Below are positions 220-10,436 of a DNA stretch of 64,000 bases, piece after piece. The DNA lies in contig NZ_WUCC01000001.1 in assembly GCF_009807095.1 (NCBI RefSeq), forward strand, positions 310,001 through 374,000, read 5' to 3'. The notes under the pieces are model-generated. The model made no database searches. It was not told where the DNA came from and saw only the letters and a list, made by a program, of their open reading frames with translations. The number at the start of each line of letters is the position of its first letter. The stretch's first letter is position 1. Source of the stretch: Rathayibacter sp. VKM Ac-2754 (GTDB lineage: Bacteria > Actinomycetota > Actinomycetes > Actinomycetales > Microbacteriaceae). The position numbers and the translations under genes are program-made.

Positions 220-286
220 ATCTCGATACGCACGCTGCGCGCGCTACTCGATCAGCAGGCTTGTCGGCGCGCTACTCGATCAGCGA
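220..286. repeat. Degenerate copy of the CTCGATACG/CTACTCGA palindromic repeat
   Basis: One element, TCTCGATACG followed by a GC-rich stem and CTACTCGATCAGC (about 220-255), is followed by a second half element, CTACTCGATCAGCG (272-285). The same palindrome family recurs at 34562-34686 and three times at 46053-46606. The second half element overlaps the 3' end of the PP2C gene and supplies its last codons (Leu-Ile-Glu) and TAG stop. The hairpin may also act as a terminator for the operon ending at 272. Confidence 0.75.
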
Positions 287-1333
287 GCTCGCGGGCTGCT
301 CGGTCGGCAGGTTCGCACCCGGGACCTCCGGCGCGAAGCGCGCCAGCGCCGCCGTGATGTTGTCGTGGCCGCCGCGCTCGTTCGCCCAGGCGACCAGCGC
401 CTCCGCCAGCGTCACCGGATCGCTGCCGACCCGGGCCTCGGCCTCGTGCAGCACGCGGGCGAGGTCGTCGGCGGGCGAGGCGTAGTTCCAGAGCCCGTCC
501 GAGCACGCGAGCACCCAGCCGGGCTCGTCGAGCACGGTGGAGGCGATGGTCGGCGACTCGTCGTGCGCGTCGGCGCCCAGCCACTTGGTGATGGCGTGCG
601 CGTCGGGAGCCGACTCCGCCTCCTCCCGGCTCGTGCCCGAGGCGATCTGCTCCTGCGCCCACGAGTCGTCGACGGTCAGCTGCCGGGGCTCCCCGGCGTC
701 GGGGATCCAGTAGCTGCGGCTGTCGCCGACATTGCCGGTGACGAGCAGAGCTCCGTCGAGGATCGCGGCCGTGAAGGTGCACGACGGAGGGTTCTCGCGC
801 TTCTCCGGCACGGCGGCGTCGATCGCTCCGGCCGCGCGGGCGACCGCCATCTGCAGCAGCGCGCCCCAGCGCTCGGCCCCGCGGGCCTCCTCGGCGACCT
901 CGGCCTGCAGAGCGCTGAGCGCGGCGCGTGCCGCGGCGAGCGAGGCGCGATCGGAGTCGGGAGTCGACGAGACGCCGTCGCAGACGACCAGCAGAGCGGT
1001 ACGCAGGGCACCCTCCGCGTCGACCGCGCCGAGTGCCATCGCGTCCTCGTTCGCCGCGTGGCGGATCCCGCGGTCGCAGACTCCGCCGACCAGCGGGTGC
1101 GGCGCCTCGGCCCAGTGCTCGCGCTCGGTCGGCGCCCGCTGCCCGCACTGCTCGCAGTAGCCGTCGTCGGCCACCGCTCCCCCGCAGTAGACGCACGGGG
1201 CCGCCGCGGCGGCGGGCGCCGGCGGCTCGGGCGCGCGCACGATCAGCGCGCTCCCGCAGGCCTCGCAGAAGGCGTCGCCGGTGGTCACCGGCTCGCCGCA
1301 GACCGGGCAGGCGGTCGCGAGCTCGCCGCTCAC
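272..1333 (-). CDS. PP2C-family protein serine/threonine phosphatase with N-terminal double zinc ribbon
   Basis: A 353-aa protein, predicted to be cytosolic because it has no signal peptide or membrane segment. Two zinc-ribbon-like Cys pairs come first (CPVC at 9-12 with CEAC at 23-26, then CVYC at 47-50 with CEQC at 60-63). The PP2C catalytic domain follows: Asp97 in NED, CDG at 118-120, GNVGDSR at 200-206, SDG at 278-280 and GGHDN at 321-325, all metal-binding or core motifs of the family. It should remove phosphate from Ser/Thr. The GTG start at 1333 overlaps the stop of pknG (GTGA), so kinase and phosphatase are translationally coupled. The C-terminal residues and stop come from a genomic palindromic repeat. 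The natural substrate is inferred to be a PknG target or PknG itself. Confidence 0.92.
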   Translation of the reverse strand: MSGELATACPVCGEPVTTGDAFCEACGSALIVRAPEPPAPAAAAAPCVYCGGAVADDGYCEQCGQRAPTEREHWAEAPHPLVGGVCDRGIRHAANEDAMALGAVDAEGALRTALLVVCDGVSSTPDSDRASLAAARAALSALQAEVAEEARGAERWGALLQMAVARAAGAIDAAVPEKRENPPSCTFTAAILDGALLVTGNVGDSRSYWIPDAGEPRQLTVDDSWAQEQIASGTSREEAESAPDAHAITKWLGADAHDESPTIASTVLDEPGWVLACSDGLWNYASPADDLARVLHEAEARVGSDPVTLAEALVAWANERGGHDNITAALARFAPEVPGANLPTEQPASSLIE

Positions 1334-3660
1334 GTGAGCGTCCAGCGGCGGACGTCGTTGGCCCGGTCGACGAGTCGGAGCCGCTCGTCCTTCTCGCGCG
1401 TCGAGCTCGCGAGGGCGCGGTACGACGCCTCGAGGCCGTCGCGGATCGCGGCCTCGTTCGCCTCGACTCCGCCGATCGACGCGCCCTCGGCGGGCCCGTC
1501 GCGGCGGACGAGCTCGAGGGCCGACTCGAGCACGCCCGTCGTCAGCTCGAGCCGGGTGCGCTGGTCGATCGCGACCGAGTCGATGCTCGACAGCGCCGCC
1601 GAGAGCGACGGGAGACCGCGTCCCGAGCCCGCGAGCAGCTCGGCCCGGCGGCGGCGCGCGTCGACGTAGGAGGAGCGCGTCGGAGTCACGATGTCGAGGG
1701 CGTCGAGCGCCCCGTCGAGATCGGCGCGGTGCTGCCGCACGCGGGCGAGGCCGAAGGCGGCCGGAGCCGTGTAGTTCGCATCCGCTCGCGCGCAGATCAC
1801 GTAGAGCGACTCCGCGACCTCGGGCTCGCCGCTCGCCTCGCACGCCGCGGCGAGCGCGAGCTTGGGCGCGAGCTCGCCGGGCACTTGGCCGTACACGGTG
1901 TTGAACGAGGCCCGGGCACCGACGGAGTCGCCCCGCGCCAGCTGGGCGAGCCCGCTCATCCACACGGCGCGCCACTCCCACGGGTCCTCGGTGAGGATCT
2001 CGCCGGTCGCCCGCGCGACGTCGTCCCAGCGCTCGGCCTCGATCGCCGCGCGGGCGCGCGAGAGGCGCACCTCGACGGTGACCGTCGGTGCCAGCGCGAG
2101 CGCACGGAGGCGGACGATCGGGTCGGCGACGTTCACGCCGGCCAGCCACGCCTTCGCCGCGTCCGACTCGTCGATCTTGAGCAGCGGCAGCGCGTCCCAC
2201 GGCAGCGGCCGGTCGACGACGTCGGCCACCGGCGCCTCGAAGAGCGCCGACTCGGTCGAGTGCAGTGCGGGGTGCCCCGGCCCGCGGTCGGTCGCGACGA
2301 CCTCGCGCAGCACGCCGAGCAGCTGCCCGCGCATCTCGTCGACGGTGGCGAAGCGGTCCTGCGGGTCCGGCGCGCACGCCTTGGCGACCAGGCGGTAGAA
2401 GGAGTCGTAGCGCTGGAACAGCGGCGTCTCGGACACGGGCGGCAGCGAGGCGACGTAGGTGGTCTGGTTCCCGCGGAAGTCGAGCACGAGCGAGGCGATG
2501 GTGCGCCCGATCGTGTAGACGTCCGAGGCGATCGACGGCCCGACCTCCGGCACCTCCGGCGCCTGGTAGCCGATGGTGCCGTAGATGGCCGACTCCTCGT
2601 CGTCGCTCCGCCGCACTCCACCGAGGTCGATCAGCTTCACCTGGTCGCCGACCTGGATCATGTTGTCGGGCTTGAAGTCGCAGTAGAGCATCCCGTGGTC
2701 GTGCAGGTAGGCGAACGCGGGCATCACCTCGAGCACGAAGGCCAGCGCCTGGTCGACGGGCAGCGGGTCGGCCGCTCCCCCGTTGGCGTCGAGCCGCTCC
2801 TTCAGGATCTGCTTGAGGCTCGGGCCGCCGACGTACTCCATCACGATGTAGCCGGCGCCGTCGTGCATCACGAAGTTGTAGATCTCGACGATCAGCGGAT
2901 GCTCCACCTCGGCGAGGAACTGCCGCTCGGTGATCGCGGCCGCGTACGCGTCGGGGTCGCCGGAGTTGAGCAGGCCCTTGAGCACGACGAAGCGGCCCGA
3001 GACGTTCTGGTCGCGGGCGAGGTAGATCCAGCCGAGTCCGCCGTAGGCGAGGCAGCCGGCGACCTCGTACTGACCGCCGACCACGTCGCCCTGCTTCAGC
3101 TGCGGGGTGAACGAGAACGGCGTGCGGCAGTTGGGGCAGAAGCCCTCGGTGCGCCCCGGCTTGCCGTCGCGGCCGCGGCCGACGGCGGTGCCGCAGTTCG
3201 AGCAGAAGCGCTTGCGCTCGGGGAGCACCGCCTCGCTCATCAGCGCCGCCATCGGGTCGGCGGCGGGGCGCGAGGGGACGGTGGTGAGTCCGGCGCCCAG
3301 GCGCGGTCCGCGCAGGCGCGTCGACGTCGTGCCGACCCGTCGGGTCACCTTCGAGCCGGTCTGGGCGGTGCGGGCCGAGCCGAGCGCGGCGGTCGCGAGG
3401 CGGGCGGAGGAGGTGCGTCCGCTCCGGGCGGTCGCCGCCTCCTCGGCGTCCGGTGCGGCCGAGGCGTCGGGCGTGCCCTCGACGAAGCCGGTGCCGAACG
3501 CGGCGGAGGCGGTCGCGGGAGCCGGAGCGGAGCGGCGGGCGGTCGGAGCCGAGGCGGCGGGTGCCGTGCCCGTCTCGGGCGGCAGCCCGCAGACGTTGCA
3601 GTAGCCGTCCTCGATGACTCCGGTGCAGCCCGGGGTCGAGGTGCAGGGTGCGCCGTTCAT
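1330..3660 (-). CDS. pknG: PknG-type serine/threonine protein kinase
   Basis: A 776-aa protein with the PknG architecture. It has a short N-terminal zinc ribbon (Cys6-Cys24), a disordered Ala/Thr-rich linker, a rubredoxin-like module with CxxC pairs at 153-156 and 175-178, and a kinase domain from about 198. The C-terminal region of helical repeats (about 480-776) is consistent with TPRs. Kinase signatures are the glycine loop AYGGLG (205-210), Lys228, catalytic YCDFKPDN (326-333, lacking the usual HRD arginine) and DLG instead of DFG (345-347). The last two variants are typical of PknG. In mycobacteria and corynebacteria PknG phosphorylates the FHA protein GarA/OdhI to control 2-oxoglutarate dehydrogenase; no garA homologue is in this window. 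The start overlaps the upstream gene by ATGA. Confidence 0.95.
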   Translation of the reverse strand: MNGAPCTSTPGCTGVIEDGYCNVCGLPPETGTAPAASAPTARRSAPAPATASAAFGTGFVEGTPDASAAPDAEEAATARSGRTSSARLATAALGSARTAQTGSKVTRRVGTTSTRLRGPRLGAGLTTVPSRPAADPMAALMSEAVLPERKRFCSNCGTAVGRGRDGKPGRTEGFCPNCRTPFSFTPQLKQGDVVGGQYEVAGCLAYGGLGWIYLARDQNVSGRFVVLKGLLNSGDPDAYAAAITERQFLAEVEHPLIVEIYNFVMHDGAGYIVMEYVGGPSLKQILKERLDANGGAADPLPVDQALAFVLEVMPAFAYLHDHGMLYCDFKPDNMIQVGDQVKLIDLGGVRRSDDEESAIYGTIGYQAPEVPEVGPSIASDVYTIGRTIASLVLDFRGNQTTYVASLPPVSETPLFQRYDSFYRLVAKACAPDPQDRFATVDEMRGQLLGVLREVVATDRGPGHPALHSTESALFEAPVADVVDRPLPWDALPLLKIDESDAAKAWLAGVNVADPIVRLRALALAPTVTVEVRLSRARAAIEAERWDDVARATGEILTEDPWEWRAVWMSGLAQLARGDSVGARASFNTVYGQVPGELAPKLALAAACEASGEPEVAESLYVICARADANYTAPAAFGLARVRQHRADLDGALDALDIVTPTRSSYVDARRRRAELLAGSGRGLPSLSAALSSIDSVAIDQRTRLELTTGVLESALELVRRDGPAEGASIGGVEANEAAIRDGLEASYRALASSTREKDERLRLVDRANDVRRWTLT

Positions 3661-4805
3661 GGGGTGGCCTTCCGGGTGGGAGTGGGGCTCGGCAGATCGC
3701 GGGTGACGACGTCGTACTGCTCGACGAGATGGCGGGCGAGCGGCACCGAGCAGGGCACGGCGTCGAGGGCGGCGCGCACCTCCTCGTCGGCGGCGACTCC
3801 CACCGCAGAGGCGGCGCGGCCGTTCGCGGCGGCCCGCTCGCGGAGGGCGCGGAGGCGGAACCCGAGGGCCGCCCGCTCGCGCAGCGGCGAGGTGTACGCG
3901 GCCTCGACGGCGTCGAAGGCGCGCCCCACCGCGGTGAGCCGAGCGAGGTGCGCGTCGAGCGCCTGCCGGTTCGAGGGCGGCTCGCCGAGTCTCGAGACAT
4001 CGGGCACCGCGAGCCGCGGGGGGTCGGCGATCTCGCGCCGGCAGCGCGCGACGAGCTCGCGCAGCGGGGCCTCGCGCCTCTCGGCCGCCTCGGCCAGCTC
4101 GATCGCGCGCCGGCGGTCGCGGTCGAGGCCGCGCCGCTCGGAGGCGGCGATGATCAGGTCGCGCTCGAGGCGGGCGGAGTCGCTCTCGAGCTGCCCGAGC
4201 GGGCCGGACACATCCGCTCCCCTGCCGGCCTTCTCGGCCAGGGCGTCGAGGCGCGAGCGCAGCACGGCGACGCGCTTCGCGGCGTCCTGGTCGACGGTCC
4301 CCCGGTTGTCGCGGGTGAGGTCGCGGCAGCGCTCGATCTCGGCGCGCACCCCGACGATCCGCCCCGCCACATCGGTGCCGCTGGGATCGAGCTCGAGGCG
4401 CGACTTCAGCTGCCCGACGACGGCGTCGCAGAGCCGCACCGCCTCGACGAGCGAGACCGCGGCGCTCGCGCCCGAGCCGGACGAATCGAGCCGGCCCCAG
4501 ATCAGCTGCGACATCCGCTCGCGGGCGACGACGTCGACCCGCCCCGAGTCCCAGACGACCTCGAGCTCGGCGAGGCGTCGCGTCACGGCCTCGCGCAGCG
4601 ACTGCGCGAGCACGACGTCGGAGGTGTAGCTGTCGGCCTGCGGGGACGCGAGCGCGGCCGCATCCAGGCGCGAGAGCTCACGGGTGGTGCGGTCGAGCCA
4701 GCGCCCGAGCGCGGCGAGGTACTCGAACAGCTCGCGCTGCGGGACCGCCTCACCGAGACGCCCCGGCGCGACCGGGCTCCCCTCGGCGGTTCCGGTGACG
4801 CTCAT
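3657..4805 (-). CDS. Coiled-coil protein of unknown function in the pknG operon
   Basis: A 382-aa protein rich in Arg, Glu, Leu and Ala, with long predicted helices and heptad-like Leu/Val spacing over most of its length (for example around 60-120 and 150-260). It has no signal peptide, membrane segment or motif I recognise. It starts at an ATG overlapping the glnH stop (ATGA) and its own stop overlaps the pknG start the same way. It is therefore made in step with GlnH and PknG. A scaffold or adaptor between the membrane sensor and the kinase is an inference from position only. Confidence 0.85.
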   Translation of the reverse strand: MSVTGTAEGSPVAPGRLGEAVPQRELFEYLAALGRWLDRTTRELSRLDAAALASPQADSYTSDVVLAQSLREAVTRRLAELEVVWDSGRVDVVARERMSQLIWGRLDSSGSGASAAVSLVEAVRLCDAVVGQLKSRLELDPSGTDVAGRIVGVRAEIERCRDLTRDNRGTVDQDAAKRVAVLRSRLDALAEKAGRGADVSGPLGQLESDSARLERDLIIAASERRGLDRDRRRAIELAEAAERREAPLRELVARCRREIADPPRLAVPDVSRLGEPPSNRQALDAHLARLTAVGRAFDAVEAAYTSPLRERAALGFRLRALRERAAANGRAASAVGVAADEEVRAALDAVPCSVPLARHLVEQYDVVTRDLPSPTPTRKATP

Positions 4806-5782
4806 CGCCCGTAGGTCGCCGCGGGAGGGGACGCCGCCCCGAGCTCGCCCAGCCAGCGGTCGTAGATGCTCTGCCAGCGCCCGTCGGCGCGGAGGCTCTC
4901 GAGCGCGGCGTTCACGAACCGCACGTAGTCGGGGTCGTCGGCCGGCATGCCGAGGCCGTACGGCTCGGAGCTGAGGGGCTCGCCGATGACCTTCGCGTAC
5001 GGGTCCTGCGCGACGAAGCCCGCCAGGATCGTGTCGTCGCCGGCGATGGCGTCGACCGATCCCTCCTGGAACTGCGCGAGGCACTGGGTGTGGGTGTCGG
5101 CGGCGACGGCCTCGACATCGGGGTAGTCGTTCTCGAGGCGGCTGAGCGTCGTGGTGCTGCGCGGGGCGCAGACCTTCTGATCGGCGAGCCCGTCGATGCT
5201 CGTGGCGTCGCTGTCCTCTGACACCAGGACCTTCAGCCCCGCGTCGTAGTACTCGGAGGAGAAGGCGATGCTGCTCCAGCGGTCGCAGGTCATCGTGAGG
5301 GTGCGCGCGACCATGTCGACCTGCGGTGCTCCCTCGCCGCCGGTCAGCGCGGGCAGGCGCTGGGCCGAGGTGATCACGACGAAGGTGATCGCGTCGGGGT
5401 TCCCGAGGATCGCGCGGGCCATCTCGCGGGCGATGTCGATGTCGAAGCCCTCGATCGTGCCGGTGAGCGGATTGCGCGCGCTCATCAGCAGCGTGTCGGC
5501 CGAGACTCCGACCCGGAGGGCGCCGTTGGCGCGGATCTCGGCGAGCCGCGTGCTGTCGGTGACGCCGGTGGGCGCGTAGGAGGTGACCGCCGACGGCGAG
5601 CACTCGGTGGCTGCCGGCGCGGCGCTCGCGGTCGCAGTGGGTGCCGCGGTCGGAGTCGCGGTGCCGACCGCGACCGCGCCGAGGTCGTCGGCGCCGGTCG
5701 TGCAGCCCGAGACGGCGAGGGTCGCGCCGAGCACGAGGGCCAGGGTGGCGGTGCGCAGTCGCGTGAGGCTCGGGCGGTTCAT
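4802..5782 (-). CDS. glnH: GlnH-like amino-acid-binding lipoprotein
   Basis: A 326-aa secreted lipoprotein. The signal peptide ends in a lipobox (LAVSGC, Cys27), then comes an Ala/Thr-rich linker and a family-3 extracellular solute-binding domain (LRVGVSADT near 93, GFDIDIAREMA, later a QEGSVDAI-like segment). In Mycobacterium the orthologue binds Asp, Glu and Gln and passes the signal through GlnX to PknG. No ABC permease or ATPase gene is beside it, which supports sensing rather than transport. ATGA overlaps join it to glnX upstream and the coiled-coil gene downstream. Confidence 0.92.
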   Translation of the reverse strand: MNRPSLTRLRTATLALVLGATLAVSGCTTGADDLGAVAVGTATPTAAPTATASAAPAATECSPSAVTSYAPTGVTDSTRLAEIRANGALRVGVSADTLLMSARNPLTGTIEGFDIDIAREMARAILGNPDAITFVVITSAQRLPALTGGEGAPQVDMVARTLTMTCDRWSSIAFSSEYYDAGLKVLVSEDSDATSIDGLADQKVCAPRSTTTLSRLENDYPDVEAVAADTHTQCLAQFQEGSVDAIAGDDTILAGFVAQDPYAKVIGEPLSSEPYGLGMPADDPDYVRFVNAALESLRADGRWQSIYDRWLGELGAASPPAATYGR

Positions 5783-7113
5783 CGGTACTCCTCCAGTCGC
5801 TGCGAGACCCCGCGCCAGGCGAGGCCGGCGCCCACGAGGCCGGCGGCCAGCAGGATCCACGAGGCGATCGACGAGATCGCCCCCCACGTGCCGAGCGTGG
5901 CGCGGGTGGTGGTGGCGCCGTCCTCGACGGCCTTCTTCGCGTCCTCCTGGAAGGCCGCGAAGGCGACGTTCGCCGAGTCGGGTTCGGTGGACACGGCGAG
6001 CTGCACGGCCCTCTCCCAGGTCCCCCCGTCGTCCGCGTCCCGGATCGCCCTGTGCAGCTCGAGCCACGCCTCGAGCTCGGTGACCAGCGCGGTGTCGACG
6101 ATGCCCTCATCGACGCCGTCCTGGAGCTTCGTCGTCGCCTCCGTCGCCGACGCCTGGAACTGCGCCTCGAGAGCCGCCCCCGAACCGCGCTTGATCAGGG
6201 TGAAGCTCTCGAGCGACTTCGCCTCGCTCGCCGCGGTGAGCGCCTGCGAGACCGCGAGGGTCGCGCGGTAGGAGTCGCCGCGCACGGCCGCGGCGTTCGA
6301 GGAGGTCGTGCCGAAGGCGACTCCGCCGGCGATGCCGAGCACGAGCAGCAGGACGGTGGCCGTCGCCAGCGAGCGGTTGAGGTAGCGGTGCGTGCGCCGG
6401 GCCAGCCAGATCTGCGCGCCGACCATCAGCAGCAGCATCGCCAGGGAGCCGACGAGCAGCAGCACGCTCCAGCGCACGGTGTCGTAGGCGCTCGCCACGC
6501 GGTCGGCGCCCGTCTCGACCAGCTCGTTGAGGTCGGCGAGCACACCGTCTTCGGCCGTGAGCACGGCCGACGCCTGGTCGAGGTACGCGGAGCCGACCGG
6601 GAAGCCCTGGCGGTTGTTCGCCCGGGCCTGCTCGATCAGGCCGCTGTAGGTGGTCAGGTCGCGCGCGACGGCGGCGAGGGCCTCGGCGTCGCGGGGCTCC
6701 GACGACGAGAGCGTCGCCAGCTGCGCGGCCGCGGCCTGGACGGAGCTCGTGAACTCCTCCCGCTGATCGGCCGGCTCGAGCCCGCCGACGAGGAAGGTGT
6801 TGGCCGCGATCGCGTTCGCGTCGACCAGGAGGTTCCGCACCTCCTGCACGCCGACGATCTGCGCCGACTGCTCGCGCGCCTCGGCGGCGGCGCGGGCCTG
6901 CAGCGCGCCCGCCTGCTGGGCGAACAGGCCGAAGAGCACCGCGGCGACGGCCGTCAGCACGAGCAGGAGGCGGAGGGTGCGCGGCGTGGTCGACGTCGCG
7001 CGGGCGAGCAGGGTCGGCTTCCCGGCCCGGGCCGGGGGCTGCGCGGCGGACTGCTGCGCGGCGGCGGGCGCGGGCGGCGCGGCGGTCGCCGTCGCGACGG
7101 GAGCGGTGCTCAT
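5779..7113 (-). CDS. glnX: GlnX-like four-helix membrane signal transducer
   Basis: A 444-aa integral membrane protein with four membrane segments near 47-66, 214-236, 248-268 and 412-434. Two large mainly helical extracytoplasmic loops lie between segments 1-2 and 3-4. The N-terminal 45 residues are Ala/Pro-rich and cytoplasmic. Size, topology and position directly before glnH and close to pknG match mycobacterial GlnX, which relays GlnH ligand binding across the membrane to PknG. It starts at an ATG overlapping the AAA+ gene stop. Sequence-level identity to GlnX was judged from topology and synteny only. Confidence 0.85.
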   Translation of the reverse strand: MSTAPVATATAAPPAPAAAQQSAAQPPARAGKPTLLARATSTTPRTLRLLLVLTAVAAVLFGLFAQQAGALQARAAAEAREQSAQIVGVQEVRNLLVDANAIAANTFLVGGLEPADQREEFTSSVQAAAAQLATLSSSEPRDAEALAAVARDLTTYSGLIEQARANNRQGFPVGSAYLDQASAVLTAEDGVLADLNELVETGADRVASAYDTVRWSVLLLVGSLAMLLLMVGAQIWLARRTHRYLNRSLATATVLLLVLGIAGGVAFGTTSSNAAAVRGDSYRATLAVSQALTAASEAKSLESFTLIKRGSGAALEAQFQASATEATTKLQDGVDEGIVDTALVTELEAWLELHRAIRDADDGGTWERAVQLAVSTEPDSANVAFAAFQEDAKKAVEDGATTTRATLGTWGAISSIASWILLAAGLVGAGLAWRGVSQRLEEYR

Positions 7114-8579
7114 GCGGTCTCCTCCGTGGGGGCGATCCCGGGCGCGGACTCGGACTCGGGCTCCTCCGGCTCGGCCTCGACCACGTCCTCCGGCTCGAGG
7201 ATGCGCAGCTCGTCGAGCGTCGGCTCCTCCGTGTCGCGCAGGCGCCAGGCGTGGCGGGCGATGGAGGCGTCGAGCACGTTGCGCACCCAGCGGCCGTTGC
7301 CGAACGCCTCGGTGCGCTGCTGGGCCGCGGCGAGCTCGGCGAAGGCGGCGAGCGCCTCCTCGGTCGGCTCGAAATCGGCGGAGGCGGCGAGGCGCCCGAA
7401 GATCGCCGACAGCTCGTCGTCGGAGTAGTCGGCGAAGTCGATCGTCGTCGAGAAGCGGCTCGCGAGACCAGGGTTCGTGTCGAGGAAGCCCTGCATCGGG
7501 CCGGAGTAGCCGGCGACGATGACGACGAGATCGCCGCGGTGGTCCTCCATGTCCTTGACGAGCGTGGTCACCGCCTCCGCGCCGTACTGGTCGAGCGCCA
7601 GGGCGTAGGCCTCATCGATGAAGAGGACGCCGCCGCGCGCCCTCGCGATGACCTCCGCGGTCTTCATCGAGGTCTGGCCGAGGTAGCCGGCGACCAGCTC
7701 CGAGCGGTCGACCTCGACGAGCACGCCCTTCGAGAGGATGCCGAGCGAGCGGTAGATCCGCGAGACGAGCCGCGCGACCGTGGTCTTGCCGGTGCCCGGG
7801 TTGCCGGTGAAGACGAGGTGGCGGGTGAGCGTGGGCGTCGTGAGGCCGGCGGCCTGCCGCAGCGTGTCGATGCGGAGCAGCTGGGTCTGCCGCTTGATCT
7901 CGCTCTTCACCCGGTCGAGCCCGATCAGCGCGTCGAGCTCGGCGAGGAGGTCCTCGATCGCCTCGGGCGGCGGGAGAGGCTCGGGCTCCTCCTCCGTGGC
8001 GGGCGCGACGGGAGACGCGGCCGCGGGACCGGCCGGGTCGGGCTCGTCCTGCGGTCCGTCGTGCTCGGTGCGGCGCAGTCGCGCCAGGATCTCGTCGACG
8101 CCCGGCACCCCCGCGGGCAGATCGGTCGGGAGCGACGGCGTCGGGAAGGTCGGCGTCGGCGCCGGCGTCCGCGGAGCCGGCGTGCTCGTCGACGGCAGCG
8201 CCCCGAGCTGGGCCGCGGCGGTCGCGGAGGCGGAGGCGATGCCTCCGATGCCGGGTTCGCCCAGCGCGCTCGCGGCCGAGACGACCTCGGTGAGCGCCCG
8301 GGCGTAGGCGGCCGCGTGCTCCGAGCGCACCGCGACGAGCGAGGCGAGCAGATCGGTGGGCGAGCTGCGCCAGCGTCGCCCGCGGGAGGCCGCCGTGAAG
8401 AAGGCCTCGAGACCGCCGGACGTGCCGGTCTGCGCCAGCCAGTCCTGGCCCGCGCCGGTGATCGACTCGGCGACCGCGGCTGCGAGCCGGCCGCCCTCCT
8501 CGCGCACGGCGGCGGCGTCGAGGCCGGCCGCGGATCCGGTGAGCACGAGCGCGTCGAGCGCCGCGGACAGCGCGGTCAC
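7110..8579 (-). CDS. CbxX/CfxQ-type AAA+ ATPase
   Basis: A 489-aa protein. Residues 1-125 are a helical region without known motifs, 126-205 a Pro/Thr/Glu-rich linker, and about 210-470 an AAA+ domain of the CbxX/SpoVK family. Walker A is GNPGTGKT (259-266), Walker B is GGVLFIDEA (316-323), and GYLGQT (298-303) is the usual pore-proximal motif. The C-terminal 25 residues are acidic. CbxX members remodel partner proteins by ATP hydrolysis; EccA of type VII secretion belongs here, but no Esx or EccC genes are nearby. The GTG start at 8579 overlaps the upstream stop. Confidence 0.88.
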   Translation of the reverse strand: MTALSAALDALVLTGSAAGLDAAAVREEGGRLAAAVAESITGAGQDWLAQTGTSGGLEAFFTAASRGRRWRSSPTDLLASLVAVRSEHAAAYARALTEVVSAASALGEPGIGGIASASATAAAQLGALPSTSTPAPRTPAPTPTFPTPSLPTDLPAGVPGVDEILARLRRTEHDGPQDEPDPAGPAAASPVAPATEEEPEPLPPPEAIEDLLAELDALIGLDRVKSEIKRQTQLLRIDTLRQAAGLTTPTLTRHLVFTGNPGTGKTTVARLVSRIYRSLGILSKGVLVEVDRSELVAGYLGQTSMKTAEVIARARGGVLFIDEAYALALDQYGAEAVTTLVKDMEDHRGDLVVIVAGYSGPMQGFLDTNPGLASRFSTTIDFADYSDDELSAIFGRLAASADFEPTEEALAAFAELAAAQQRTEAFGNGRWVRNVLDASIARHAWRLRDTEEPTLDELRILEPEDVVEAEPEEPESESAPGIAPTEETA

Positions 8580-9142
8580 GAGGCGCTCGGCGGCTGGAGG
8601 GAGCCGGGGGTGCTCGGCGCGCCGGGGGTGCCCGACGCGTCCAGCCCGCTCGGCGAGAGCGACGACTCCGTGAACTTCTCGGCGAGGAACTGCCCGTGCG
8701 CGATCAGCGCCGAGGCGTCCTGGCGCGAGACGGCGTCGGAGATGCGGTCGAGCGTCGCCCCGAGCAGGTCGAGCTGGTCGCAGAGGATCATCAGCGAGGT
8801 CTTCCCCTTGTAGACGGCGCGGCGGTCGGCGAAGTCGCGCGGCAGGCGGAGGTAGCCCTCCACCGCCTCGGGCAGGTAGCTGGTGGCCGTCGCGACGACG
8901 GTGTGCCCCTGCTGGCTCATCCCGCCGAGGCGGTCCAGGCGCGGGATCATCTCGCGCACGGTCTCGTCGACCCGGCGGATGCGCGCCGAGACGAGCGGCG
9001 GCACGCGGCCGGCCGTCGTCGCCGCGACCCGGTCGAGGGCGGCGAGGATGTCGTCGCTCGACGGCACGCGCGGGAGGGCCGGCGCGGTCTCCACCGGAGC
9101 GGCCGGCTCGTCGCCGCCGAACAGTCGGGAGAGCCAGCCCAT
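8576..9142 (-). CDS. Small helical protein between telA and the AAA+ gene
   Basis: A 188-aa protein starting MGWLSRLFGG, a short amphipathic N-terminus that could associate with membranes. A helical core follows (about 25-155), then a Ser/Pro/Gly-rich tail. I do not recognise the family. In Firmicutes telA is usually paired with a helical xpaC-like gene; this gene occupies the same position, but I cannot show homology. It is 3 nt downstream of the telA stop and its own stop overlaps the AAA+ start, so it belongs to the operon. Confidence 0.85.
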   Translation of the reverse strand: MGWLSRLFGGDEPAAPVETAPALPRVPSSDDILAALDRVAATTAGRVPPLVSARIRRVDETVREMIPRLDRLGGMSQQGHTVVATATSYLPEAVEGYLRLPRDFADRRAVYKGKTSLMILCDQLDLLGATLDRISDAVSRQDASALIAHGQFLAEKFTESSLSPSGLDASGTPGAPSTPGSLQPPSAS

Positions 9143-9145
9143 CGG

Positions 9146-10348
9146 CTAGCGGCCGAGATCGAGCGCGGAGGTCGCGTCGATGTCGGAGTTGCTGCGGCGA
9201 GCCCGCTCGACGTACTCGCCGGCCTTCGCCGTCTCGGTCTGCAGGACGCCGACCGTCTGGGCCATGCTGTCGAGCGCCTTGATCTTGAAGTCCGAGATCG
9301 AGTCCATCGTCTGGTAGATGTTCGCGAACGCCGCCTGCAGCTGGGGCAGTCCGACCGTGGCCGACGCCGCCTGCGACTGGATGCTCGCGGACTGCTCGGC
9401 GAGCATCCGCGAGGTCGCCTCGATCATGTTCGAGGTGGTCGTGTTGAGCGCCGTGATCTGATCGAGCACCAGGCGCTGGTTGGCGAGCGCCTGCGCGACG
9501 ATGACCGCCGTGCGCAGCGCTGAGACCGTGGTCGTGGTGGCGCGGTCGACGCCCTTGATCAGCTCGACGTTGTTCTTGATCACCACGTCGATCGCGAGGT
9601 AGCCCTGGATCGACACCGCGAGCTGCGTCAGCAGATCCTGGTGCTTCTGGCGGGCGTAGAAGAGGACGTCCTCGCGCAGCGCACGGGCGCGGTCGGGGTC
9701 GGTCGCGTCGAGCTCGGCGATCTTGGCCGAGAGCTTCACGTCGAGCCGCTCGGCGACGTAGATGTACTCGTTGAGACGCGTCATCGTGTCCCACAGGTTC
9801 TGCTTCTCGAGGTTCAGCGCCGCGTTGTCCTTGCGGAGCTCGTCCTGCCCGTCGTACAGCGCCTGGATGATCGCGTTGAGGTGCGACTGCGCGCTCTCGT
9901 ACCGGCGGAAGTAGTCGGTGATCTTGTTGCCGAAGGGGATGAATCCGAGGATCTTCTTCTGGATGTTGTCCTCGGAGGGGTCGAGGTCCTCGACCGTGCG
10001 GCGGAGCTCCAGCAGCGTCTTCCCGATGTTCGAGCCCTCGCTCAGGCCGCCCTCCTGCAGAGCGCGCACCGGAGTTTTGAGCAGCCGGTTCGACGAGTCG
10101 GCGGCCGAGCGGATGTCGGCGTCGCCCATCGTGCGGATGTCGTTGGCCTTCGCCGCGAACTCGGGGCTGCGCGCCTCGGTCGCCATCAGCGAGTCGAGGT
10201 AGCCCTCGACCTTGGCCTCGAGGCCGGGCAGAGCCTGCTCGGGCACCTTCGGCGCGATCGACGGTGCCGACGTCCTCGACACGGCGTCGACCGGGGCCGG
10301 CGGCGTGAGCGAGAGGGCGTTCTGGGGCGGCTGCAGGGCCTCGGTCAT
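9146..10348 (-). CDS. telA: TelA / toxic anion resistance family protein, first gene of the pknG operon
   Basis: A 400-aa soluble, mostly helical protein with the TelA family pattern: LGFIPFGNKITDYFRRY near 120-140, a long helical bundle with LEKQNLW and VDRATTTTVSALRTA, and QALANQRLVLDQI. TelA proteins were named for tellurite resistance but behave as cell-envelope or stress proteins of unclear mechanism. The ATG at 10348 was chosen because GGTGAGGA lies 5 nt upstream. A GTG at 10360 would fall inside that ribosome site. A single promoter-like box lies about 56 nt upstream, and the gene leads the eight-gene operon. Confidence 0.92.
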   Translation of the reverse strand: MTEALQPPQNALSLTPPAPVDAVSRTSAPSIAPKVPEQALPGLEAKVEGYLDSLMATEARSPEFAAKANDIRTMGDADIRSAADSSNRLLKTPVRALQEGGLSEGSNIGKTLLELRRTVEDLDPSEDNIQKKILGFIPFGNKITDYFRRYESAQSHLNAIIQALYDGQDELRKDNAALNLEKQNLWDTMTRLNEYIYVAERLDVKLSAKIAELDATDPDRARALREDVLFYARQKHQDLLTQLAVSIQGYLAIDVVIKNNVELIKGVDRATTTTVSALRTAVIVAQALANQRLVLDQITALNTTTSNMIEATSRMLAEQSASIQSQAASATVGLPQLQAAFANIYQTMDSISDFKIKALDSMAQTVGVLQTETAKAGEYVERARRSNSDIDATSALDLGR

Positions 10349-10403
10349 CGGGATCCTCACCGTTCTGTGGCGCTCGGCGCCGACTGCGGATGAACGTCGG
10401 GAC

Positions 10404-10409
10404 AGTGTA
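10404..10409 (-). promoter_or_regulatory. -10-like box for the telA-to-PP2C operon
   Basis: Read on the minus strand the sequence is TACACT, a TANNNT actinobacterial -10 hexamer. It lies 56 nt upstream of the telA ATG in the only non-coding gap before the operon. No convincing -35 is visible. Below it the eight genes are nearly contiguous, so this may be the main promoter. Confidence 0.45.
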
Positions 10410-10436
10410 TCCCGAGGCGGTGCGAGCGGGCCCCGG

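What the first reader, a model, noticed from the sequence alone, without database searches (positions are those of the whole stretch)
272..10409. Eight-gene PknG operon joining TelA, AAA+, GlnX/GlnH, kinase and PP2C
telA, a helical protein, a CbxX-type AAA+ ATPase, glnX, glnH, a coiled-coil protein, pknG and a PP2C phosphatase are head-to-tail; every junction after telA is a 3-nt gap or a 4-base overlap, and one -10-like box precedes telA. GlnX-GlnH-PknG is a known amino-acid sensing route in mycobacteria. The addition of a dedicated phosphatase, an AAA+ remodeller and TelA in one transcription unit suggests a larger signalling complex than is described for the mycobacterial locus.
Basis: partly seen in the sequence, partly recalled or inferred. 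Interest (0 to 1): 0.75.

Follow-up and report, generated by a model that had tools for sequence, protein, structure and literature searches.

The report
Ten-gene PknG amino-acid signalling operon
A conserved set of ten genes found in many soil and plant-associated actinobacteria joins a known amino-acid sensor and protein kinase to its own phosphatase, a likely built-in target and reader, and a little-understood TelA module, which suggests that this kinase does more than the metabolic job known from mycobacteria.

Summary
Observation confirmed. On the minus strand, 272-10348, telA, a helical gene, a CbxX-type AAA+, glnX, glnH, a coiled-coil gene, pknG and a PP2C gene lie head to tail with one 3-nt gap and six 4-nt overlaps. 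It is no strain oddity: the order is exact in 64 of 70 long-enough named loci (chosen as best TelA matches), and all eight genes occur in 8 of 60 PknG loci fetched from a class-wide sample. Another 28 of 60 loci have pknG, PP2C and vWA without telA, so telA-hel-AAA is an added module. vWA proteins end in a near-invariant Ser/Thr tail (45 of 48) and the FHA protein keeps its phosphothreonine-binding residues. My reading: an amino-acid-gated phospho-switch with its own substrate, reader and phosphatase, driving a TelA/AAA+ assembly. Anatomy is shown; phosphorylation and output are inferred. A GarA-like protein is in 96 of 100 family genomes, 3 of which have a PknG match. New variant of the GlnH-GlnX-PknG system.

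The parts
10404..10409 (-). -10-like box TACACT upstream of telA
   Evidence: Sequence; TAnnnT box at this place in 13 of 13 genus loci aligned; no full sigma-70 consensus
9146..10348 (-). telA (PF05816), 400 aa; alternative GTG start at 10360
   Evidence: Pfam 308 bits; 62-67% identity to eight copies from other families; no PDB relative at E up to 1
8576..9142 (-). helical protein 'hel', 188 aa; predicted helical bundle, no known family
   Evidence: No Pfam or NCBIfam match at E 0.001; AlphaFold2 mean pLDDT 80.6; no PDB fold match at E 0.001
7110..8579 (-). CbxX/SpoVK/EccA-type AAA+ ATPase, 489 aa, GTG start
   Evidence: GNPGTGKT in 95 of 95 ten-gene-type copies, LFIDEAY in 80 of 95
5779..7113 (-). 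glnX, 444 aa, four hydrophobic segments
   Evidence: NF058618 268 bits, cut-off 250; four segments by hydropathy
4802..5782 (-). glnH, amino-acid-binding protein with a lipobox-like N-terminus, 326 aa
   Evidence: SBP_bac_3; best PDB match M. tuberculosis GlnH 6h1u, 208 bits; lipobox read by eye
3657..4805 (-). helical coiled-coil protein 'cc', 382 aa, between GlnH and PknG
   Evidence: No family at E 0.001; AlphaFold2 mean pLDDT 89.1, long helices; profile match over its C-terminal half to the gene in the same slot of core loci, probability 97.8; no PDB fold match at E 0.001
1330..3660 (-). pknG, 776 aa: N-terminal zinc-ribbon-like motif, rubredoxin, kinase, TPR
   Evidence: DFKPDN or DFKPEN catalytic loop in 93 of 93 and N-terminal cysteine motif in 84 of 93 ten-gene-type copies, by pattern
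272..1333 (-). PP2C phosphatase with double zinc ribbon, 353 aa, GTG start
   Evidence: GD[ST]R, [SC][DS]G[LV]W and DN patterns each in 92 of 92 ten-gene-type copies

Best explanation
This is the front part of a conserved ten-gene actinobacterial operon (telA-hel-AAA-glnX-glnH-cc-pknG-pp2c-vWA-FHA) encoding an amino-acid-gated Ser/Thr phosphorylation switch. Shown by sequence: gene order, domains, catalytic and binding motifs, conservation. Inferred: outside the membrane GlnH binds an amino acid; GlnX carries the state across; GlnX and the helical cc protein hold PknG at the membrane through its TPR domain; PknG phosphorylates the conserved Ser/Thr tail of the vWA protein; the zinc-ribbon FHA protein binds the phosphorylated tail; the operon's PP2C resets it. 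In the ten-gene version the output is a TelA/hel assembly at or near the membrane, built or taken apart by the AAA+ ATPase, probably for envelope or chemical stress tolerance matched to nutrient state. In the window's species vWA and FHA are encoded about 17.5 kb away.
For: Order and overlaps. Eight-gene order exact in 64 of 70 named loci with at least 9 kb downstream; an ORF re-check of the other six finds all eight genes in L232 and L241. vWA and FHA follow PP2C in L109-L112, L123, L125, L127, L140-L142 and genus member L159, and lie close in L169. In the class sample 68 of 71 genomes with VWA_3_C have PknG, 56 of them within 8 kb; Fisher p 4e-37, not corrected for phylogeny. vWA: DxSxS metal-site residues invariant except the fourth letter's neighbours, and Ser417/Thr420 of the tail invariant in 19 of 19 aligned; tail motif in 45 of 48. 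FHA: G207, R208, S228 and N250 invariant in 15 of 15. Kinase, phosphatase and AAA+ motifs kept. GlnH amino-acid-binding residues kept: R169 and D250 in 93 of 93, R147 in 92 of 93 (residue roles from PMC6069109). A GarA-like protein in 96 of 100 family genomes, PknG in 7 of 199. TelA+AAA without hel or PknG (L257, L258) and TelA+hel without AAA (L259) suggest a separable effector module.
Against: No phosphorylation, binding or expression data. vWA and FHA are not adjacent in the window's own species, and its FHA has Gln where 13 of 15 aligned copies have the SRxH His. GlnH position 232 (Trp in M. tuberculosis) is His in 68 and Asp in 20 of 93 copies, and position 162 (Thr) is Asn or Ala in 58 of 93, so Asp/Glu specificity is not assured. 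Three divergent PknG-linked vWA proteins lack the tail motif (L126, L138, L139). The tail partly overlaps the Pfam VWA_3_C model, so some of its conservation may be structural. PP2C zinc ribbon by pattern in only 38 of 92 copies. hel and cc have no fold match that would indicate function. L249 has telA and hel only, L213 lacks AAA and pknG hits, L240 lacks a glnH hit. TelA biochemistry is unknown, so the output is a guess. Named loci were chosen by TelA similarity.
Confidence: 0.45

Rival explanations
1. Ordinary GlnH-GlnX-PknG control of GarA/OdhI and 2-oxoglutarate metabolism, as in mycobacteria and Corynebacterium; the operon PP2C is simply the GarA phosphatase and the other genes are accessory.
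For: GlnH is closest to M. tuberculosis GlnH and PknG to 2pzi; a GarA/OdhI-like protein with a Thr-rich N-terminus is in the same genome (L172; best NCBIfam model OdhI, 164 bits, below its cut-off of 200); PMC6069109 reports the linkage across Actinobacteria (passages).
Against: The GarA-like protein occurs in 96 of 100 family genomes although PknG is in 7 of 199, so it is not tied to PknG here; a vWA with a conserved Ser/Thr tail and an FHA protein go with PknG. In Corynebacterium OdhI is dephosphorylated by Ppp (PMC9769921, passages), and this genome has another PP2C beside an FHA pair (L173).
Confidence: 0.3
2. Two independent units share a promoter: telA-hel-AAA, a constitutive stress-resistance module, and glnX-to-pp2c (plus vWA-FHA), a signalling unit. 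No functional or physical link.
For: TelA-hel and TelA-AAA occur without PknG; the core occurs without TelA in 28 of 60 loci. In the class sample TelA lies within 12 kb of PknG in only 9 of 39 genomes that have both.
Against: A 4-nt AAA/glnX overlap is possible in 89 of 91 loci and the order survives across families, more than promoter sharing requires.
Confidence: 0.2
3. A conflict or defence system related to Ter/TelA systems and to kinase-PP2C-vWA triads, guarding against phages or toxic compounds rather than sensing nutrients.
For: PMC7824862 (passages) places TelA and a vWA protein in sub-membrane structures of Ter systems; PMC7159879 (passages) reports actinobacterial active kinase-PP2C-vWA neighbourhoods in conflict systems.
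Against: PADLOC finds no hit for TelA, hel, GlnX, GlnH, cc, PP2C, vWA or FHA; PknG hits 29 models (best PD-T4-6, 122 bits) and AAA+ six (best 31 bits), which I read as generic kinase and AAA matches. PknG is present in 15 of 15 genus members, and a four-protein tree of 67 loci groups copies largely by genus, unlike a mobile defence island. No Ter family among the Pfam matches of the eight proteins.
Confidence: 0.08
4. Chance adjacency or artefact.
For: None found beyond the lack of RNA data.
Against: Recurrence in many genera and conserved possible overlaps.
Confidence: 0.01

Closest known systems
GlnX-GlnH-PknG-GarA/OdhI pathway of Mycobacterium and Corynebacterium (PMC6069109, PMC9769921, PMC8546545; passages seen, figures not held)
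   Same: Same sensor protein, four-segment membrane protein and kinase with TPR domain, in the order glnX-glnH-pknG.
   Different: Further genes: cc, PP2C, vWA, FHA, and in the long form telA, hel, AAA+; an extra N-terminal cysteine motif on PknG; altered GlnH ligand position 232.
Kinase-PP2C-vWA neighbourhoods of actinobacterial conflict systems (PMC7159879; passages seen)
   Same: Active kinase often with a zinc ribbon, active PP2C and stand-alone vWA in linked genes.
   Different: Those are tied to GAP1-N2 GTPases; here the kinase is PknG with rubredoxin and TPR domains, with GlnX, GlnH and an FHA protein.
Ter/TelA stress systems and the Firmicute XpaC-TelA pair (PMC7824862, PMC12791056; passages seen)
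   Same: TelA with a vWA protein, or with a second protein encoded beside it.
   Different: No Ter family among the eight proteins; hel has no XpaC-family match; kinase linkage.
Kinase/phosphatase/FHA/vWA parts in novel type VII secretion clusters (PMC11217815; passages seen)
   Same: Kinase, PPM phosphatase, vWA and FHA proteins occur in such clusters.
   Different: No secretion ATPase or WXG100 family among the eight proteins; flanks not searched for them.

Membership tests
GlnH-GlnX-PknG signalling system | PknG with rubredoxin, kinase and TPR domains | tested here: met
   PF16919, PF00069 and PF16918 over cut-offs; 2pzi best PDB match
GlnH-GlnX-PknG signalling system | Linked GlnX family membrane protein | tested here: met
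   NF058618 over cut-off; the narrower equivalog NF041460 is not met (92 bits against 780)
GlnH-GlnX-PknG signalling system | Linked GlnH with amino-acid-binding residues | tested here: met
   Window protein keeps R147, T162, R169 and D250; S164 is Thr; W232 is His, so ligand specificity is open (residue list from PMC6069109)
GlnH-GlnX-PknG signalling system | Phosphorylation of GarA/OdhI by PknG | not testable with these tools
   A GarA/OdhI-like protein is in the genome; no biochemical data
TelA family | PF05816 match over cut-off | tested here: met
   308 bits, cut-off 30
Ter stress system | TerB/TerC/TerD partners in the locus | tested here: not met
   None among the Pfam matches of the eight proteins; flanks not scanned
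CbbX, SpoVK or EccA AAA+ equivalogs | NCBIfam equivalog cut-off | tested here: not met
   SpoVK 255.5, EccA 232.5 and CbbX 228.3 bits, below cut-offs of 423, 467 and 459
XpaC (partner of TelA in Firmicutes) | hel matches the XpaC Pfam family | tested here: not met
   No XpaC match for the window hel and four relatives at E up to 1; only two weak unrelated matches below cut-off
Type VII secretion cluster | EccC/EssC ATPase and WXG100 gene | tested here: inconclusive
   None among the Pfam matches of the eight proteins; flanks were not searched for these families

The most novel reading that the evidence does not exclude
In most non-mycobacterial actinobacteria PknG is not chiefly a GarA kinase: it is the engine of a self-contained amino-acid-gated phospho-switch whose own substrate is the Ser/Thr tail of the vWA protein, read by the zinc-ribbon FHA protein, and which in several families controls a TelA/AAA+ membrane-remodelling machine. 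The mycobacterial three-gene operon would then be a pared-down form re-aimed at GarA.
Probability: 0.3. Interest if true: 0.8.

Novelty: new variant of a known kind. Interest (0 to 1): 0.6.

Why it matters
PknG is a much-studied kinase known largely through GarA/OdhI and mycobacterial virulence. A conserved operon that supplies it with a phosphatase, a possible adaptor, and a likely substrate and reader gives a directly testable second output, and gives TelA, whose function is unknown, a defined set of partner genes including an AAA+ ATPase.

Tried and rejected
Rejected: 'confined to one strain'; hel as an XpaC member; a known anti-phage system; a class-wide TelA-PknG rule (only 9 of 102 PknG genomes have TelA within 12 kb).

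Led nowhere: PDB fold searches for hel and cc gave no match at E 0.001; TelA has no PDB relative; literature searches for the extended operon listed no paper that describes it in title, abstract start or the passages seen (open-licence PubMed Central only). A 2012 paper on Ter systems, recalled, was not held, so a mention there cannot be excluded; nor can one in the figures of PMC6069109, which are not held.

Limits: gene starts outside the window come from a simple GC-based caller of my own, which misplaces some starts; therefore asks only whether a start is possible. Some species of the window's genus appear twice among the loci. Class and family PknG searches scored only 18 and 27 first-look candidates per genome. 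Two first-draft tallies were mended on checking: class loci are now, and the genus count after pp2c is 12 of 14.
Full report
What is there. Eight genes lie head to tail on the minus strand between 10348 (or 10360) and 272. The telA-hel junction is a 3-nt gap and all later junctions are 4-nt overlaps. Pfam and NCBIfam identify TelA, an AAA+ ATPase with AAA_lid_6, the GlnX family, a family-3 solute-binding protein, PknG (rubredoxin, kinase, TPR) and PP2C with a double zinc ribbon; the helical and coiled-coil genes match nothing at E 0.001. GlnX has four hydrophobic segments. The window lies on contig C2 of a 3.97-Mb genome; the closest named TelA loci are Rathayibacter.

Control region. A TAnnnT box (TACACT at 10409-10404) lies upstream of telA in 13 of 13 genus loci aligned, with a partly conserved leader. 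No full sigma-70 promoter scores, and the one terminator-like site is on the other strand. One transcript is likely but unmeasured.

Distribution. PknG_rubred is found in 102 of 296 genomes of the class, 15 of 15 of the genus, and 7 of 199 of the family, 2 of 85 genera. Searches scored only the top 18 and 27 first-look candidates per genome, so misses are possible. I fetched 60 PknG stretches from the class sample, not every match place. By profile search of open frames: 8 have all eight genes plus vWA and FHA (L107, L109-L112, L123, L125, L127); 28 have pknG, PP2C and vWA without telA, 24 of them with all seven core genes; 12 have glnX, glnH and pknG and no other operon gene detected; 2 have pknG alone; 10 are other or cut-off combinations. 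Of these, 70 have at least 9 kb downstream and 64 show the exact order. An open-frame re-check of the other six finds all eight genes in L232 and L241; L240 lacks a glnH hit, L213 lacks AAA and pknG hits, L195 is fragmentary, and L249 has only telA and hel. Genera with the exact order include Rathayibacter, Agreia, Oerskovia, Cellulosimicrobium, Promicromonospora, Cellulomonas, Pseudactinotalea, Kribbella, Kineosporia and Luteipulveratus.

The missing two genes. Downstream of pp2c, other genera carry a vWA gene and a gene with zinc ribbons and an FHA domain; in L107 an opposite-strand gene lies between. In the window's species the pair is at C2:290630-292797, same strand, about 17.5 kb from pp2c. 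In 12 of the 14 genus loci examined (own genome included) the next gene after pp2c begins like the window's, which is a methylmalonate-semialdehyde dehydrogenase (TIGR01722, 686 bits); in L169 the vWA pair follows within 1 kb. In L159, not among those 14, vWA follows directly. In the class sample 68 of 71 VWA_3_C genomes have PknG, and in 56 the two lie within 8 kb. This statistic ignores phylogeny, and contig breaks hide some linkage.

Likely mechanism. The vWA alignment keeps the metal-site aspartate and serines (D48, S50, S52) and ends in a tail, in the ten-gene loci typically DEMALDTASTKTTR, with Ser417 and Thr420 invariant in 19 of 19. The tail motif is found in 45 of 48 complete copies, the three misses being divergent loci. 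Part of the tail lies inside the Pfam VWA_3_C model. The FHA alignment keeps G207, R208, S228 and N250 in 15 of 15; that such positions bind phosphothreonine is recalled knowledge of FHA domains. Kinase loop, PP2C motifs and Walker A are kept. Hence the inference that PknG marks the vWA tail, FHA reads it and PP2C erases it. GlnH keeps residues for the amino-acid backbone but not Trp232, and often not Thr162, so an amino acid is likely sensed, its identity open.

The TelA module. TelA is strongly conserved (62-67% identity to copies in other families). TelA with an overlapping AAA gene but no hel or PknG occurs in L257 and L258, and TelA with hel alone in L259, so AAA+ and hel look like TelA partners joined to the PknG core. 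Yet TelA and PknG are usually apart: of 39 class genomes with both, 9 have them within 12 kb. In a FastTree of four joined proteins from 67 loci the Rathayibacter and Agreia copies form one branch and copies group largely by genus, consistent with old vertical descent and repeated loss, or one old gain.

GarA. The genome has a GarA/OdhI-like protein (L172; best NCBIfam model OdhI at 164 bits, below its cut-off of 200). Relatives are in 96 of 100 family genomes, of which 3 (G000, G305, G385) had a PknG match.

Known or new. The passages seen of PMC6069109, PMC9769921 and PMC8546545 describe only glnX-glnH-pknG. Kinase-PP2C-vWA triads are known from conflict systems (PMC7159879, passages). No paper listed or 98 appeared to describe the extended PknG operon. 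I judge it a new variant of a known kind.

Noticed in passing
G000:C2:289406-290389 (L176 907-1890): A second Ser/Thr kinase gene (Pkinase 170 bits) sits beside the separated FHA/vWA pair in opposite orientation; kinase-like hits also lie beside FHA in L159, L169 and L170.
   Followed up: partly
L176 2131-3027 (FHA protein): The window species' FHA domain has Gln where 13 of 15 aligned copies have His in the SRxH motif; L107 has Gln too.
   Followed up: no
Upstream of telA, window about 10361-10410: The palindrome TCGGCGCCGA follows the -10 box in 8 of 13 genus loci aligned; it could be an operator.
   Followed up: no
L257, L258: telA and the AAA+ gene overlap by 4 nt without hel or pknG in another family of the order: a minimal TelA-AAA pair.
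   Followed up: partly
L212 and L241: A record titled Sphaerisporangium cinnabarinum ranks among Cellulosimicrobium TelA copies and one titled Streptomyces sp. groups with Kribbella in the tree; the records may be misnamed.
   Followed up: no
PknG, PP2C and FHA proteins: All three carry N-terminal zinc-ribbon-like motifs in the window's species (Pfam for PP2C and FHA; pattern only for PknG); PknG and FHA share a YC-x-VCG signature. By pattern the PP2C ribbon is found in 38 of 92 copies.
   Followed up: partly
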